Of a stretch of DNA of 38,258 bases, positions 29,867 through 36,301 are shown one piece after another. Within the stretch, counting starts at the first letter, position 1; the number at the start of each line of letters is the position of its first letter. The notes under the pieces were generated by a model. That model was not told the origin of the DNA. It was given only the letters and a program-made list of their open reading frames with translations, and did no database searches. A program made the translations under genes and the position numbers. The DNA comes from Caryophanales bacterium (GTDB lineage: Bacteria; Bacillota_I; Bacilli_A; RFN20; CAG-826), in NCBI GenBank assembly GCA_016290145.1, contig JAEESX010000007.1, positions 1 through 38,258 on the forward strand, given 5' to 3'.

Positions 29867-31009
29867 TTACCTTAATTTACCTAATGATTCCTTAAGAGCG
29901 GATCCCTTTGGGAACATAACTCTGATGACTTGGCCTTTGGCAACGAAGGAAATCCATCCTAAACCTTCAACGGAAATATCATGGACTTGACCATCGTTTT
30001 CCATTGTGTATTCGAAGAAGTCATAATCACGGAAGTTATCAATTCTTTCGCTGACTGGTCTCAAATAACGTTTTCTATTATTTTCTTCTAAGAAGTCATT
30101 AACTTTATCGGAAGAAATCTTTTTGATTTCTACACCTTCCGCACAGTAGAACTTAATCGCGGTTGGTTTACCAGAGAAGAGTTCAAAGTACGCTAAAGAA
30201 CCTGCGACTAAAGCGTCACCTTTCATTAATGTACGATAATGTGTTTCCACTTTTCTTCTTGGGATGATTAACTTTTGGACTTCTTTCTCAACTTTGCCCA
30301 CGACTGATGTGGCTAATGAGAAACCTGGAAGTTCGTATAAAAATGAAGAATTAGTGAGTGGAATGCTCATAACTTTCACACTTGTGCCACGATAGCTTTC
30401 AGTTTTGATAGGCCATTTTGTTTTATTTTCATAGTGTTTTAACATTTTGTTAATTAACACTGTTTTACCTGAACTCTTGGAGCCGATTAAATAAATATCA
30501 TGTGCCTTACGAGCGGAGTTGAATTTCTTCATCAAGGCTTCGATATCAACATCACTTTCGCTTCCGAGAATGCTGACGGAGTCTGGTTTGATGCCAACTT
30601 CTTCAAAGCGTTCTTCAAGGAATTGCGCTAATGTTTCATCTTTGATGACATTTGAGAATAAGTCTCTATGTGTGCCGATAACTGCGACGTTAAGGCGTTT
30701 AATCTTTTTAATAATGTCTGGATTTAATGTTCCATTAAATGTGAACAAATCGACAACATAAATAATGTATGCATCTGTGGCAATGGCATCATCTAAGATC
30801 TTTGCGGTTTGTTTATCGATGTTTTGTTCAAGAGCACCTGTATTAATGCTCTTCATTTCATCGAAACACTTTTGGCAGTACAAGACTTGGCTATCCCCTG
30901 TGTAACCATCAAGTAATTCTGCTGGAACATATCCTTTTTCACTTGCTTTTTTACTTTGTAAAACTGTACCACAGTTATAACAACGTAACACTCTTCTAAC
31001 TTTTCCCAT
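29867..31009 (-). CDS. yqeH: YqeH-like circularly permuted GTPase with altered G motifs
   Basis: Ribosome-biogenesis GTPase needed for 30S assembly in Bacillus. The 380-residue chain has an N-terminal zinc finger (Cys10, 13, 45, 48), the permuted G domain and a C-terminal domain. The region YVVDLFTFNGTLNP matches the family's DxFDFNGS segment. G1 is intact (GSKSSGKT, 176-183). G4 reads GTHRD (112-116) instead of NKxD, and G3 reads ELPG (226-229) instead of DxPG. Guanine specificity and hydrolysis may therefore be changed. It overlaps yqeG by 14 bases and has a GGAGGA ribosome-binding site. Confidence 0.92.
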   Translation of the reverse strand: MGKVRRVLRCYNCGTVLQSKKASEKGYVPAELLDGYTGDSQVLYCQKCFDEMKSINTGALEQNIDKQTAKILDDAIATDAYIIYVVDLFTFNGTLNPDIIKKIKRLNVAVIGTHRDLFSNVIKDETLAQFLEERFEEVGIKPDSVSILGSESDVDIEALMKKFNSARKAHDIYLIGSKSSGKTVLINKMLKHYENKTKWPIKTESYRGTSVKVMSIPLTNSSFLYELPGFSLATSVVGKVEKEVQKLIIPRRKVETHYRTLMKGDALVAGSLAYFELFSGKPTAIKFYCAEGVEIKKISSDKVNDFLEENNRKRYLRPVSERIDNFRDYDFFEYTMENDGQVHDISVEGLGWISFVAKGQVIRVMFPKGSALKESLGKLR

Positions 31010-31529
31010 AAATCGTCCTCCAACTTATTAAGTTACCCCTCTTCTTATGGTATTTTCTGATTCTTCTTCCAAAGATTCTGTTGAAACGCGTAGTCCATTG
31101 ATCTTCTTTAACAATCTTATCGGTCAATATGACACGTATTCCCACTCTTTTAGCAGCGGCGACATCTGTAATCATTTGATCACCGACTAACATGACATCG
31201 TCTTTTTCCCATCCGTGTTGTTTGAGGAATTTTTTAATTCTGAACCCGAATGGCTTAGCTGCACTGTTGATGTAGATGAGATTTAAGTCATTTGCGTATG
31301 TTCTTACGCGCTTGCCCCTGTTATTAGAAACAATCACAGGTAAGATGCCTGCGTCTTGGATTTTCTTAACAAGTTCCACTGCTCTTTCTGTTGGATGATA
31401 GAGTTTGTAACTATCTAATGTGTTATCGAGATCCATTAACAAAACTTTGACTTTTTGTTGCTTGAAGAAATCGATATCTATTTCATAGATAGATTCTGCA
31501 ACGGCGAAAGGAACGTACTTGTTTTTCAT
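30996..31529 (-). CDS. yqeG: YqeG family HAD-type phosphatase
   Basis: HAD superfamily IIIA phosphatase, 177 residues. Motif I is MDLDNTLDS (catalytic Asp33 and Asp35), motif II VSNN, motif III AAKPFG and motif IV GDQMITDV, followed by a basic tail. The substrate is not known in general; related proteins dephosphorylate phosphatidylglycerol phosphate, so a lipid role is possible. It opens the yqeG-yqeH-yhbY-nadD/yqeK unit, with AGGA nine bases before the ATG. Its first 14 codons and a later piece are duplicated upstream as a remnant. Confidence 0.93.
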   Translation of the reverse strand: MKNKYVPFAVAESIYEIDIDFFKQQKVKVLLMDLDNTLDSYKLYHPTERAVELVKKIQDAGILPVIVSNNRGKRVRTYANDLNLIYINSAAKPFGFRIKKFLKQHGWEKDDVMLVGDQMITDVAAAKRVGIRVILTDKIVKEDQWTTRFNRIFGRRIRKYHKKRGNLISWRTIYGKS

Positions 31530-31630
31530 AACTTATAATCCTATTGTAAAAGAAAAAGTCTAATATTCATAGACTTTATTATTTATATAATTAATGGAAA
31601 TTCGTTTTCGGAAAATGGTTTTTTATTAAA
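31487..31630. repeat. Direct repeat, copy A (yqeG start, spacer and terminator)
   Basis: Matches copy B at 32515-32645. The 60 bases covering the yqeG start region show about four differences. Similarity continues through the hairpin (AAAGTCTAATATT...TAGACTTTATTATTTATA) and fades near the lipoprotein 3' ends. Confidence 0.85.
31545..31577 (-). terminator. Hairpin terminator between lipoprotein gene and yqeG
   Basis: AAAGTCTA, 7-base loop, TAGACTTT, followed on the minus strand by TTCTTTT. A near-identical copy lies at 32570-32601, part of the duplicated unit. Confidence 0.65.
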
Positions 31631-31639
31631 AGCGATTTA

Positions 31640-32455
31640 CTAAACTGTGAAATTTCGCCAAATGTTCATTGTATAAGTAGCAGCATCTACTTGATCCACA
31701 ACAAATGTGAATGTTACGAAAGAACGCACATAATCCATAGTAACGTCACACTCACCACATACCCTTGGATAGCGAAAACGGAAATATGCGTTTGTACCTT
31801 CGATGTAATAGCTCATATATTTGTAACTAGACATTTTATTCTTTCCGCTAAAAATAGTCACAAAAACTACAGCATTGTGTTCGAAGAAACTATCGGAATA
31901 AGTAACAAAACCATTATTTCTAGAGAAACCTTCATTTGCAACTTGTTCCATAGAGGTAACAACAAAAATGGTCGTTTCATCTTGCTCCATGCGCTTGGGT
32001 GTATCATTGATTGGCGTATAGCTGTGACAATATGCGAATTGCGTTGTGTATTCTACAATAGCGTGTGTAATGGTTGTAACCGTTTCGTCTGCGTATTTAA
32101 CTACAAGTGAAGCGTTTTCAGAAACAGCTTTTGGAGTGATCACAAAGAAGAAATTATGCCTTTGACTATTACGGCTAGACTCAAATAGTTCACTTACTTT
32201 CAACACATCATCGCTATATTCAAAGGAAAATAAATCTTGATAACCCCAAGAACGGTTGTCGATATCAATTTTTAAAAGATAATCGTTTCCGAGTATATAT
32301 GAGTCAACGGCAATTTCATCAGCTAGGTTTCCTTCATGGGTAACGAAGCGATAAGAAAACTCTGGAGCAGTTTCTGGAAGGACTCTCTCCTGTTTGTTTG
32401 GGCAAGCAGATAATGCAAGCGCCAATACTGGTAAAAGAAGATATTTAAATTTCAT
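31640..32455 (-). CDS. Putative lipoprotein, paralogue 1 of a tandem pair
   Basis: The 271-residue protein has a lipoprotein signal: MKFKYLLL, a hydrophobic core and lipobox LSAC with Cys18. After that it appears to be a beta-rich extracytoplasmic domain with no recognised family. It shares with the gene at 32646 the patterns GNxYxxxIxxxN, FSFxY, FxFVI, DSFFE, YKYxxYYIE, YFR and a W-x-N end, at low overall identity (my estimate is about a quarter). There are extra Cys late in the chain (CGEC). The promoter is a TATAAT 8 bases before the ATG, formed where a yqeG remnant decays, so the transcript may be leaderless. Confidence 0.8.
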   Translation of the reverse strand: MKFKYLLLPVLALALSACPNKQERVLPETAPEFSYRFVTHEGNLADEIAVDSYILGNDYLLKIDIDNRSWGYQDLFSFEYSDDVLKVSELFESSRNSQRHNFFFVITPKAVSENASLVVKYADETVTTITHAIVEYTTQFAYCHSYTPINDTPKRMEQDETTIFVVTSMEQVANEGFSRNNGFVTYSDSFFEHNAVVFVTIFSGKNKMSSYKYMSYYIEGTNAYFRFRYPRVCGECDVTMDYVRSFVTFTFVVDQVDAATYTMNIWRNFTV

Positions 32456-32463
32456 CTAAATTC

Positions 32464-32469
32464 ATTATA
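32464..32469 (-). promoter_or_regulatory. -10 box for lipoprotein 1, 8 bases before ATG
   Basis: TATAAT on the minus strand, overlapping the stop of the yqeG remnant. No good -35 seen. Same spacing to ATG as dinB and lipoprotein 2. Confidence 0.5.
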
Positions 32470-32557
32470 TACCGATGCAGTCAAGAAAAAACACTGCTCT
32501 TTCAACTGGATGGCAGATAGATTCTGCTACAGCGAATGGAACATACTTGTTTTTCAT
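32465..32557 (-). pseudogene. Remnant of yqeG left by tandem duplication
   Basis: From the ATG at 32557 the remnant encodes MKNKYVPFAVAESI, identical to YqeG residues 1-14, then joins directly to CHPVERAV, matching YqeG YHPTERAV (44-51). About 30 codons are deleted in frame. It then diverges and stops after 30 codons. The yqeG ribosome-binding site (AGGA) is kept upstream. The HAD catalytic Asp motif lies in the deleted part, so no YqeG activity is possible. The reading frame is still open and could make a short peptide. Confidence 0.85.
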
Positions 32558-32645
32558 AACTTATAATCCTATTGAAAAAAAGTCTAATATTAATAGACTT
32601 TATTATTTATATATTTATAGAAAATGACGTTTTCGAAAATGTGTT
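32515..32645. repeat. Direct repeat, copy B (yqeG start, spacer and terminator)
   Basis: Second copy of the sequence at 31487-31630, located between the two lipoprotein genes. The AAAGTCTA/TAGACTTT hairpin (32579-32601) with its minus-strand T run probably terminates lipoprotein 2 transcripts. Confidence 0.85.
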
Positions 32646-33491
32646 TTATAAATTCTTTATGCGAGCGTTAAACCAAAGATCAAAGTTGGTTGTCTCGCCA
32701 TCAGCTTTGTCAATCACTAATGCTATAGCGGTACTACCTTGAAACCATGGTTTTCTAACTGGTTTAAACATTACATCGTATGGGATTCCCTCGCGATAAT
32801 GTGTAATGCGGAAATAGACAATACCATTTTCAATGTAGTAGTTCTCGTATTTATAATTTGCGATTGATTCGCGTAAGAGAATGTATACAAGACTGCTCGT
32901 TTCAAAGAAACTATCGTCTATATTATATGCAAGCGAACTGGATACCCATGTTGGATATTGGTCCATTTCTTCCTTAGAAGATATTACAGTTGCTTTATCC
33001 ATAAGATGTTCTGTTGTCTCGTTGTAATATACTTCTGTTATATTGTCATAACGGCAATAATTTAATCTTTCGCTAAAAGATCTTATTGGGTAGTCAATTT
33101 CATTAATTGTTTGTTTCAAATGATTAACAACAATTTTATTGTTATCAGATTCCTTTTTGACATCGATAACAAACAAGAAGCTCATATCCTTTCGTGCCCC
33201 TTGCTTGTAATAGTATGGCGTTATGTCATACGCCTCTTCATCATATGTAAAAGAAAAATCATCAAAATAAGCAAAGCTTTCATCGTTATTTTTAACGTAG
33301 ATACAAAATGTATACGTGTTGCCAACGATAAAATATTCAATGTCGATACTTTCGTAACCAGACAATGTTGAACCTTCTCTAAAATAATTGAATGAAAACG
33401 TTGGTGATACTTTTGGATATGGTCTCTTATTGCATGCACAAAGGGATGCTGCAATCAATAAAGTTCCGATGAATGCTAAACTTTTCTTCAT
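32646..33491 (-). CDS. Putative lipoprotein, paralogue 2 of a tandem pair
   Basis: The 281-residue protein has signal MKKSLAFIGTLLIAAS and lipobox LCAC (Cys20), then an aromatic- and Asn-rich extracytoplasmic domain without a recognised family. It is a distant paralogue of the gene at 31640: PxFSFNYF, GNTYTFCIYVKNN, FSFTYDEE, FLFVID, NYCRY, DDSFFE, NYKYENYYIE and a DLWFN end. The start has TATAAT 8 bases upstream, plus GAGGG in between that may serve as ribosome-binding site. It lies after the parC terminator and is followed by the duplicated spacer. Confidence 0.8.
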   Translation of the reverse strand: MKKSLAFIGTLLIAASLCACNKRPYPKVSPTFSFNYFREGSTLSGYESIDIEYFIVGNTYTFCIYVKNNDESFAYFDDFSFTYDEEAYDITPYYYKQGARKDMSFLFVIDVKKESDNNKIVVNHLKQTINEIDYPIRSFSERLNYCRYDNITEVYYNETTEHLMDKATVISSKEEMDQYPTWVSSSLAYNIDDSFFETSSLVYILLRESIANYKYENYYIENGIVYFRITHYREGIPYDVMFKPVRKPWFQGSTAIALVIDKADGETTNFDLWFNARIKNL

Positions 33492-33499
33492 TTGCCCTC

Positions 33500-33505
33500 A
33501 TTATA
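33500..33505 (-). promoter_or_regulatory. -10 box for lipoprotein 2, 8 bases before ATG
   Basis: TATAAT on the minus strand, then GAGGGCAA, then ATG. It follows the parC terminator directly. No convincing -35. Confidence 0.5.
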
Positions 33506-33512
33506 CATTAAG

Positions 33513-33555
33513 TAAGCAAAAAGAAAACTCACAAAGTGATTAGCCTCGTGAGTTT
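33513..33555 (-). terminator. Rho-independent terminator after parC
   Basis: On the minus strand AAACTCAC, a 15-base loop and GTGAGTTT, followed by TTCTTTTTG. It ends the parE-parC unit. Confidence 0.82.
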
Positions 33556-33570
33556 CCATATTTTTCTTAT

Positions 33571-33611
33571 ATCTAATAATGTACTAATAATCTACTAATA
33601 TGCTTTACTAA
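33571..33611 (-). repeat. 11-base-period TTAGTA repeats in the parC 3' region
   Basis: Plus-strand cores ATCTAA (33571), TACTAA (33582) and TACTAA (33593) are exactly 11 apart, with a further TACTAA at 33606 (13 apart). In parC's direction these read TTAGTA. They sit between the parC stop and its terminator. Confidence 0.5.
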
Positions 33612-33625
33612 CATACATAGTATGT

Positions 33626-36301
33626 TTATTCATCATCATCGACATCGAAGATTGATATTTGTTCAAAGGACTTATCGTCTTTCTTTTCTTTTGCTTTTTG
33701 TGGTTCTGCGACTGGCGTTTCTTGGCTTTCTTCCACCACATTTTCTTCTTCCAATAAGCTTTCTACTGGTTCATCAGATGTCTCGACTGAGATTTCTGGT
33801 TTGACCTTTTCAATTATTGGGAAAGAGATTGTATTTTTGTCGATTCTATCAATGTTTGTGTCAAAGACACACTTCACTGTAGTTCTTGCTGGAAGACCAC
33901 AATTGGCTTTTGCGTATTTGGCTTCTGTCAATCTGAAGTCATCCACCGCTAACTTGAAGATGCTGTTATCGCTGAGATAAAGATTTAATTTCATTAAATC
34001 TAAATCCTTGTCGACCTTAACTGCAGCAATGATCTTATGGATATCACTCTTGAATGATGGGCAGATTTCTTGTGGTTTACCTAGGCGTTGTGTACGCGTA
34101 ATCCTATTAATATCTATCACGCGCTCATGACCTTTATCGGTAACTAAGATTACTTTGGCCTTTTCGTCTTCATGGGCAGCGATTAATGCTGCGGCTTGGT
34201 TTTTACCTAAGCCAGAGATAGATTTCACGCCACCGGCCTTAGGACCGAGGATTGTTAAGTCGTTCTCATTGAACAAACTTCCCATACCATTACTTGTTAA
34301 AACAAGTAAGTTGCTATTTCCTGTTAAGACTTGAATACCAACGACTTCATCACCATTGAGAAGCTTCATACATCTCGCTGGACGAGAACGTTTGAATGTT
34401 TCGATTCCTGAAACAGGCATACGTTTAATTTGCCCGAAACGAGTTAAAAACGCTAAATAAACGTCATTTCTAAGTTGATGCAAAGCGATTGCTTTGATAA
34501 TCTTTTCGCCTGGTGCAAATGAGACAAATGTGTTCAAGTGAACGCCTTCATCTTTGAAACGATTTTCAGTGAGTTTGTGCACTGGAATGCATGCATAGTT
34601 ACCTAAGTTTGTAAAACAAACTAGGTAATCGGTTGTTAATGCTTGGCCAACTGCCACGATTGCATCGCCATCTTTTAAGCCTGGATCTGCATCGTCACCT
34701 GAACCTTTATAGGACTTGATTGAACAACGTTTTGCATAGCCATCACGTGTAACAACAACGATGGTTTCTTCCTCTGCGATAAGCTGGCGCTTATCAATTG
34801 GTTTATCGTCTTCTTTTTGTTCAATTTGTGTCTTTCTATCATCACCGTATTTGGCGGAAATTTGTTTTAAGTCTTTGATTAAAACACGGTTTAATTTCGC
34901 TGGATCATTGAGAATTTCGGTGAGATTTTCGATATCTTTAACGAGTTGTTTTCTCTCGTTTTCGAGAATAACTTCATCAGTATGACTCAACTTGTATAAT
35001 GGCATTGTAACGATAGCTTCCGCTTGTTCGTTTGAGAAGCCAAAATGCTTCATTAAGTTAACTTTACTATCGGCTTTATCTTTACTCTTTCTGATGATTT
35101 CCACGACTTCATTAATGCAAAGCGAAGCTTTGATTAATCCTTCAACAATGTGGAGTCTTGCAGAATACTTTTCTAAGTCGAATTTGCTTTGTCTTGTAAC
35201 GACATCAACTTGGTGTTCAATGTAGGCATCAATATAGTCCAAAAGTGTTAATGTTCTTGGTCTACCATTGACGATGGCCACCATGTTTGCGGAGTATGAT
35301 GTCACTAAAGGCGTTTTTGCCTTTAAGTATTTGAGTAAGAGGTCGACTTTTGCATCTTTCTTACAGTCGATTGCGATTCTAATACCTTTATAGTCAGATT
35401 CATCTCTTACTTCGATAAGACCACTGACACTCTTTGCGTGGATAATTTTGTCTATTTCATAGACAAGGTCTTTTTTCACCACTTTATAAGGTATTTCTGT
35501 GATGATAATTTGTTGATTATCTTTATTCTGAACGATTTCTGCTTTTGAGCCAATTTCAATCTTTCCACGACCTGTTAAATATATATTTTTGAGGCCTTCG
35601 GATTCGTAAATAATACCACCACCTGGGAAGTCTGGACCTTTAATGAATTCCAATAAGTCTTCTGTGGTTGCGGTCTTGTGACCAATACGATAAATAGTCG
35701 CATCAATAACTTCTCTAAGGTTATGAGGTGGGATTTCAGTTGCTAAAGCAACTGCGATACCTTCTGTACCATTAACTAACAAGTTAGGGAATCTAGATGG
35801 TAAAACGATTGGTTCATATTCGGTATCGTCGAAGTTAAGTTGCATATCAACTGTCTTCTTTTCGATATCACGAATGAGTTCGTTAGATAATTCGCTCAAT
35901 CTGGATTCTGTATAACGGTAAGCGGCTGGAGAGTCGCCATCAATAGAACCATTATTACCCTGAAAGTCGATTAATGGGTATCTAACTTTCCAGTCTTGGC
36001 TCATTCTTGCGAGAGCTTCATAGATGGATGTATCACCATGTGGGTGGAATGTACCCATAACCGCACCAACGGTATGAGCGCACTTCTTTGTTGGTTTGTT
36101 AAAAGTGTTACCACTTTTATACATTGAGAAGATGATTCTTCTTTGAACTGGTTTTAAACCGTCCCTCACATCTGGAATAGCACGGTCTTGAATAACGTAT
36201 TTAGCATAGGTGGCATATCTATCACCCATGACATCTTCAAGAGGTTCAACTGAAATCTTTTCGATGATCTCTTCAATGACTTCTTCTTTTTTCTTTGCCA
36301 T
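33626..36301 (-). CDS. parC: DNA topoisomerase IV subunit A
   Basis: DNA-breaking subunit of topoisomerase IV, which unlinks daughter chromosomes. It has the winged-helix region with RRIIFSMY and HPHGDTSIYEALARM, and catalytic Tyr130 in AYRYTESRLSEL, then the tower and coiled-coil, and a C-terminal beta-pinwheel (FGQIKRMPVSGIETFKRSRP). At 891 residues it is longer than B. subtilis ParC; the extra length is an acidic tail ending FDVDDDE. A Thr sits at the quinolone-contact position that is often Ser. ParC rather than GyrA is favoured by its parE neighbour and the lack of a clear GyrA box. AAGGAGGTC precedes the ATG. Confidence 0.94.
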   Translation of the reverse strand: MAKKKEEVIEEIIEKISVEPLEDVMGDRYATYAKYVIQDRAIPDVRDGLKPVQRRIIFSMYKSGNTFNKPTKKCAHTVGAVMGTFHPHGDTSIYEALARMSQDWKVRYPLIDFQGNNGSIDGDSPAAYRYTESRLSELSNELIRDIEKKTVDMQLNFDDTEYEPIVLPSRFPNLLVNGTEGIAVALATEIPPHNLREVIDATIYRIGHKTATTEDLLEFIKGPDFPGGGIIYESEGLKNIYLTGRGKIEIGSKAEIVQNKDNQQIIITEIPYKVVKKDLVYEIDKIIHAKSVSGLIEVRDESDYKGIRIAIDCKKDAKVDLLLKYLKAKTPLVTSYSANMVAIVNGRPRTLTLLDYIDAYIEHQVDVVTRQSKFDLEKYSARLHIVEGLIKASLCINEVVEIIRKSKDKADSKVNLMKHFGFSNEQAEAIVTMPLYKLSHTDEVILENERKQLVKDIENLTEILNDPAKLNRVLIKDLKQISAKYGDDRKTQIEQKEDDKPIDKRQLIAEEETIVVVTRDGYAKRCSIKSYKGSGDDADPGLKDGDAIVAVGQALTTDYLVCFTNLGNYACIPVHKLTENRFKDEGVHLNTFVSFAPGEKIIKAIALHQLRNDVYLAFLTRFGQIKRMPVSGIETFKRSRPARCMKLLNGDEVVGIQVLTGNSNLLVLTSNGMGSLFNENDLTILGPKAGGVKSISGLGKNQAAALIAAHEDEKAKVILVTDKGHERVIDINRITRTQRLGKPQEICPSFKSDIHKIIAAVKVDKDLDLMKLNLYLSDNSIFKLAVDDFRLTEAKYAKANCGLPARTTVKCVFDTNIDRIDKNTISFPIIEKVKPEISVETSDEPVESLLEEENVVEESQETPVAEPQKAKEKKDDKSFEQISIFDVDDDE

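What the first reader, a model, noticed from the sequence alone, without database searches (positions are those of the whole stretch)
31640..33491. Lipoproteins diverged far more than the flanking spacer copied with them
Spacer and yqeG-start copies differ by only about four in 60 bases, but the two proteins look only about one-quarter identical. Coding DNA diverging faster than adjacent non-coding DNA suggests strong diversifying selection, or cassette exchange of surface lipoproteins through flanking repeats. The proteins have no recognised family.
Basis: partly seen in the sequence, partly recalled or inferred. Interest (0 to 1): 0.7.

Follow-up and report, generated by a model that had tools for sequence, protein, structure and literature searches.

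The report
Swapped lipoprotein genes between conserved flanks
In a group of uncultured rumen-type Bacilli, an unclassified surface-lipoprotein gene sits between two housekeeping genes; its protein-coding block appears to have been swapped for very different versions by DNA exchange through its conserved borders, and one genome has kept two versions side by side, a known way for bacteria to vary exposed proteins, here in a new place.

Summary
Two tandem lipoprotein genes (LP2 32646-33491, LP1 31640-32455, minus strand) are 27% identical, while the spacer plus yqeG start copied behind each is 86.5% identical. The interval is a lineage-specific insertion: four congeners run gyrA directly into yqeG, the sister species RGIG8036 has one LP there, this genome has two. 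Between the two species the flanking proteins are 87-98% identical and the border DNA about 85-90%, yet LP2 and the sister's LP are only 40% identical. Silent sites discriminate: identical codons at conserved residues are 48/109 (0.44; saturation predicts 0.46) against 1764/2325 (0.76) in the flanks; only 4 of 601 gene pairs genome-wide are as low, and other equally divergent lipoproteins average 0.59. Break points fall inside the signal peptide (33453) and just before the stop (32685). Diversifying selection alone does not saturate silent sites, so replacement by recombination between conserved flanks is the better reading. LP1 most likely entered by recombination anchored in yqeG, leaving a truncated yqeG start behind LP2. 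What the proteins do is unknown; no convincing homologue outside this locus was found in 279 genomes of the order.

The parts
33626..36301 (-). gyrA, conserved upstream flank (91% protein identity to sister G003)
33492..33625 (-). gyrA-LP2 intergenic: gyrA terminator-like hairpin and LP2 promoter-like TATAAT just before the ATG; 86% identical to sister
32646..33491 (-). LP2, lipoprotein of unknown family, 281 aa; positional counterpart of the single LP in G003 (40% identity)
33453..33491 (-). first ~13 codons of LP2 (signal peptide): still at flank-level identity to G003 (9/11 conserved codons identical in the first 16)
32685..33453 (-). divergent block of LP2 (52% DNA identity to G003 against 87% outside), the inferred replaced segment
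   Evidence: change-points, LLR 67 versus permutation maximum 9.6
32558..32645 (-). spacer copy B with hairpin AAAGTCTA-N7-TAGACTTT (32579-32601)
32492..32557 (-). truncated yqeG start (codons 1-14, 87-nt deletion, about codons 44-51), scar of the insertion or duplication
32456..32491 (-). LP1 promoter region; its end resembles the G003 LP promoter (TATAATGA...TAGATGAAA, 17/20)
   Evidence: 3 of 500 shuffles as good
31640..32455 (-). LP1, second lipoprotein, 271 aa, 27% identical to LP2, 29% to G003 LP
31586..31639 (-). 3' border of LP1 that belongs to its divergent block (change-point at 31586)
   Evidence: 54% versus 94% identity to G003, LLR 54
31530..31585 (-). spacer copy A, yqeG-proximal part with hairpin (31555-31577), about 97% identical to G003
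30996..31529 (-). yqeG, intact, conserved downstream flank (95.5% protein identity to G003)

Best explanation
The gyrA-yqeG interval of this two-species clade carries a lipoprotein gene whose mature-protein segment is an exchangeable allele. SHOWN: the gene is present only in this clade among the genomes searched; promoter, first ~13 signal-peptide codons, spacer and neighbours carry ordinary between-species divergence, while the segment between them is divergent at saturation, at silent as well as replacement sites, with sharp borders. INFERRED: homologous recombination in the conserved flanks replaced the segment, in at least one of the two lineages, with an allele that had split long before the species did. 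INFERRED with less certainty: LP1 is a second such allele, brought in on DNA that also carried its spacer and the yqeG start; one end recombined within yqeG by homology and the other joined illegitimately near codon 51 of the resident yqeG (homology-facilitated illegitimate recombination), giving LP2 - spacer - yqeG stub - LP1 - spacer - intact yqeG. The duplicated flanks would let either lipoprotein be lost or swapped again. The likely benefit is variation of an exposed lipoprotein (phage, competitor or protist contact); that last step is untested.
For: Flank proteins 87-98% and borders 85-90% identical against 40% for LP2/G003 LP. Silent codon identity 0.44 in LP against 0.76 in flanks, Fisher 5e-12, equal to the saturation expectation of 0.46; 4 of 601 gene pairs as low; ten other lipoprotein pairs below 50% identity average 0.59, Fisher 0.0018 (1.9e-4 without the signal peptide). 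Break points LLR 67 against a permutation maximum of 9.6. gyrA-yqeG distance is 181-256 bp in four congeners, 1108 in G003 and 2096 here. The three spacer copies are about equally distant: A-B 86.5%, A-G003 87.5%, B-G003 88.6%, so A and B look like two lineages rather than a recent duplication. All four A/B differences in the 14-codon yqeG stub are synonymous, as expected if both diverged as working yqeG genes. HFIR with retention of the old gene in a tandem array has been proposed for V. cholerae immunity genes (PMC5361080).
Against: No donor allele was found in 279 genomes of the order or in viral contigs. Only one sister genome carries the gene, so exchange within a species was not seen. 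The synonymous-only argument rests on four changes (P about 0.002 if all fell on the stub's branch, about 0.2 if only one did). The stub's second piece (codons 44-51) has non-synonymous changes. LP1-LP2 silent identity in well-aligned blocks (25/38) is not clearly saturated. Excess similarity of the yqeG 5' end to G003 is not significant (permutation P 0.18).
Confidence: 0.6

Rival explanations
1. In-place tandem duplication of [LP - spacer - yqeG start] followed by very fast vertical protein evolution under diversifying or relaxed selection; no import.
For: The anatomy is exactly that of a tandem duplication. Lipoproteins here evolve fast in general: median identity to the sister 0.68 against 0.92 for other proteins, and one lipoprotein pair elsewhere (own C30:15812-16786) has 32% identity with unsaturated silent sites (0.70), so the mode exists in this genome.
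Against: For LP2 versus G003 silent sites are saturated (0.44 against 0.59 for equally divergent lipoproteins and 0.76 in flanks), which selection on the protein cannot do. The drop is abrupt, inside the signal peptide.
Confidence: 0.18
2. Hidden paralogy: the common ancestor already held an array of diverged LP copies with repeated spacers, and recombination between the repeats deleted different copies in the two species.
For: The direct-repeat spacers would allow loop-out. The G003 spacer is B-like next to the LP and A-like next to yqeG, as a loop-out between B and A would leave.
Against: LP2 and G003 LP share promoter and signal-peptide DNA at species-level identity, so the 5' end is orthologous and the break lies inside the gene. 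No LP lies at this place in four other congeners, leaving a short time for an array to diverge to saturation.
Confidence: 0.15
3. The spacer is simply conserved by function (terminator or promoter of yqeG) and the duplication is old, so the contrast tells nothing.
For: The hairpin upstream of yqeG is conserved across the genus.
Against: The copy behind LP2 precedes a truncated yqeG. Conservation includes third codon positions and LP-proximal bases not conserved in other congeners. The species comparison shows the same island independently of the duplicated spacer.
Confidence: 0.04
4. Assembly artefact of the MAG: two strain alleles of one locus joined in tandem.
For: It is a 75%-complete, 40-contig assembly; no reads are available.
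Against: The junction holds a yqeG stub with an 87-nt in-frame deletion and further changes, absent from the intact copy; joining two alleles would not create it. Both ORFs are intact.
Confidence: 0.03

Closest known systems
Borrelia OspC and other host-interacting lipoprotein loci
   Same: Surface lipoprotein alleles whose recombinants are preferentially retained, with exchange within and between species (PMC11389397).
   Different: Unrelated protein, chromosomal housekeeping context, tandem pair with a gene-stub scar; selection by host immunity not shown here.
Staphylococcus aureus lpl/til (DUF576) tandem lipoproteins
   Same: Tandem, variable-number lipoprotein paralogues that recombine; at least TilA is an immunity lipoprotein against a secreted lipase toxin (PMC10730906).
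   Different: No DUF576 match; no toxin gene adjacent; only two copies.
V. cholerae T6SS immunity-gene arrays built by homology-facilitated illegitimate recombination (proposed)
   Same: Incoming gene anchored by homology at one end and joined illegitimately at the other, with the resident gene kept in tandem (PMC5361080).
   Different: No effector genes; the anchor here is yqeG; a single event.
Mycoplasma-type phase-variable lipoprotein families (from general knowledge)
   Same: Low-GC bacteria with variable surface lipoproteins.
   Different: No relevant inverted repeats, silent cassettes or single expression site found here; each LP has its own promoter-like site.

Membership tests
Recombinationally exchanged surface-lipoprotein locus (OspC-like mode) | Coding segment more divergent than both flanks at silent sites | tested here: met
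Recombinationally exchanged surface-lipoprotein locus (OspC-like mode) | Sharp divergence borders near the ends of the gene | tested here: met
   33453 and 32685; 31586
Recombinationally exchanged surface-lipoprotein locus (OspC-like mode) | Different alleles segregating among strains of one species | not testable with these tools
   one genome per species held; no conspecific strain
Recombinationally exchanged surface-lipoprotein locus (OspC-like mode) | A donor or shared allele identified in another lineage | tested here: inconclusive
   none found in 279 genomes of the order or in viral contigs, but only one genome per species was searchable and metagenome contigs were not, so the donor pool is hardly sampled
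Bacterial lipoprotein (SPase II substrate) | Signal peptide with lipobox cysteine | tested here: met
   LSAC / LCAC / VSSC in all three proteins
DUF576 (Lpl/Til) tandem lipoproteins | Match to the DUF576 model | tested here: not met
   Pfam and NCBIfam scans
Homology-facilitated illegitimate recombination product | One homologous and one non-homologous joint with partial duplication of the anchor gene | tested here: inconclusive
   yqeG stub joined to LP1 promoter; a tandem duplication gives the same joint
Phase-variable lipoprotein cassette system | Invertible or silent cassettes with a recombinase or a shared expression site | tested here: not met
   no relevant inverted repeats; LP family absent elsewhere in the assembled part of the genome

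The most novel reading that the evidence does not exclude
The gyrA-yqeG junction of these rumen Bacilli is an exchange site for alleles of an undescribed immunity- or receptor-type lipoprotein, with incoming alleles added beside the resident one through yqeG homology so that tandem repertoires grow, as in immunity-gene arrays.
Probability: 0.15. Interest if true: 0.6.

Novelty: new member of a known kind. Interest (0 to 1): 0.36.

Why it matters
It shows that a contrast seen by eye between spacer and gene divergence can be traced to allele replacement, using silent sites in a sister genome as the test. It adds an orphan lipoprotein family, confined so far to one two-species clade, to the loci that bacteria diversify by recombination, and the yqeG stub gives a view of how a second allele can be added. 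It also marks lipoproteins as a fast-evolving class in these uncultured gut Bacilli.

Tried and rejected
(1) AlphaFold of LP2 with the three-sequence alignment: mean pLDDT 57, pTM 0.47; Foldseek against the PDB gave nothing below E 0.17, only generic Ig-like sandwiches, so no fold claim is made. (2) Search for donor alleles in viral contigs, genome contigs and the order: nothing beyond G003; weak matches (E 1e-4 to 1e-2) mostly cover signal peptides (residues 1-50) or, in G074/G085, residues 46-160 of a 306-aa lipoprotein, too weak to use. (3) Idea that the yqeG 5' end was itself imported from a G003-like donor: fewer silent differences in codons 1-51 (7/51 versus 40/127, P 0.015), but change-point permutation P 0.18, so not claimed. 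(4) Search for the hairpin as a genome-wide operator: only the two copies at this locus; no Rfam match. (5) DUF6957 hit to LP2 (17.8 bits, cut-off 27) rejected as below threshold.

Full report
SETTING. The window is contig C24 of an 850-kb, 75%-complete, 40-contig assembly. The only outside relative of the lipoproteins with a name is Bacilli bacterium isolate RGIG8036 from water-buffalo rumen (L056); its contig has the same length (11,867 bases) and the same match as contig C33 of genome handle G003, so the two are taken as the same record. On the minus strand the order is gyrB - gyrA - LP2 - yqeG stub - LP1 - yqeG - yqeH - yhbY - nadD.

OBSERVATION. LP1 and LP2 are true homologues at 27% identity (E 4e-26). 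Behind each lies a copy of the same spacer plus the start of yqeG: 92% over 65 nt and 82% over 71 nt, 86.5% over 141 nt when joined. The copy behind LP2 is a yqeG stub: codons 1-14, an 87-nt in-frame deletion, then about codons 44-51, then the LP1 promoter region. All four differences between the two copies of codons 1-14 are synonymous.

THE LOCUS IN RELATIVES. gyrA is followed directly by yqeG in four congeners (181-256 bp apart) and in nearly all other genera of the family examined. G003 has one LP in the gap and the present genome two. The LP gene is therefore an insertion specific to this pair of species. No homologue at useful strength exists elsewhere in either genome, in 224 genomes of the family or 279 of the order, in viral contigs, Pfam, NCBIfam or PDB sequences.

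THE KEY TEST. If LP2 and the G003 LP diverged in place under selection on the protein, their silent sites should resemble those of the neighbours. They do not. At residues conserved between the two species the identical-codon fraction is 48/109 in LP2, 39/98 without the first 16 codons, and 1764/2325 in gyrB, gyrA, yqeG, yqeH, yhbY and nadD; codon usage predicts 0.46 at saturation. Pairwise dS is 0.30-0.66 in the flanks and about 2.1 in LP2; dN is 0.02-0.08 and 0.54. Because poor alignment alone could lower the figure, nearly the whole of both genomes was compared (841,563 and 1,215,541 bases; 605 reciprocal best pairs after filtering). Only 4 of 601 pairs with at least 50 conserved codons are as low, LP2 itself included, and ten other lipoprotein pairs with under 50% identity have 922/1550 = 0.59 (Fisher 0.0018; 1.9e-4 without the signal peptide). 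LP2 is thus abnormal even among fast-evolving lipoproteins.

BORDERS. Identity between the two genomes is about 85% through the gyrA-LP spacer, the promoter and the first ~13 codons, falls to 52% at window position 33453, and returns to about 87% at 32685, 13 codons before the stop (LLR 67, largest of 60 permutations 9.6). On the LP1 side the divergent block ends at 31586, in the spacer. A divergent block with sharp ends between ordinary flanks is the expected footprint of allele replacement by recombination.

HOW LP1 CAME. The three spacer copies (A before intact yqeG, B behind LP2, and G003) are about equally distant, 86.5-88.6%, so A and B are as different as two species are. With the synonymous-only differences in the stub, this suggests that A arrived from another lineage with LP1 rather than by recent duplication. 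A single homology-facilitated illegitimate recombination event, anchored in yqeG and joined near resident codon 51, gives the observed order. A tandem duplication as old as the species split followed by allele replacement is not excluded. Such events have been proposed for V. cholerae immunity arrays (PMC5361080).

WHAT IT DOES. All three proteins have lipobox signal peptides. The AlphaFold model is too poor to use (pLDDT 57) and no fold match is significant. Variation of an exposed lipoprotein is the natural reading, by analogy with OspC-type loci (PMC11389397) or immunity lipoproteins (PMC10730906); neither was tested, and no toxin gene lies next to the locus.

VERDICT. The mode is known and the locus and protein family are new, so this is a new member of a known kind. 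The main limits are a single informative sister genome, no donor, and no read data.

Noticed in passing
window 31555-31577 and 32579-32601: Perfect inverted repeat AAAGTCTA-N7-TAGACTTT shortly before the yqeG start; the same or a near-identical repeat occurs at this place in all six genomes of the genus and a recognisable form in some other genera (L010, L012, L016), but no exact match elsewhere in this genome. Terminator or operator, unexplained.
   Followed up: partly
own genome C30:12613-16786 and C34:22084-23991 (G003 C15:67704-71761, C53:18422-20348): Tandem arrays of ~300-aa lipoproteins, syntenic in both species, only 32-40% identical. The C30:15812-16786 pair keeps unsaturated silent sites (0.70) at 32% identity, so it is a better candidate for real diversifying selection than LP1/LP2.
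   Followed up: partly
own genome versus G003, all lipobox pairs: Pairs with a lipobox-like N-terminus have median identity 0.68 between the two species against 0.92 for the rest, by a simple regular expression that also catches some cytosolic proteins.
   Followed up: partly
window 33491, 32455; L037 5567: All three LP genes have TATAATGA a few bases before the ATG (hexamer to start about 9-10 nt) and no clear Shine-Dalgarno, which suggests leaderless transcripts.
   Followed up: no
L051 1435-1776 and 1911-2384; L047 1123-2043: Small lipoproteins elsewhere in the family share a weak N-terminal pattern with LP1/LP2, perhaps a broad undescribed superfamily.
   Followed up: no
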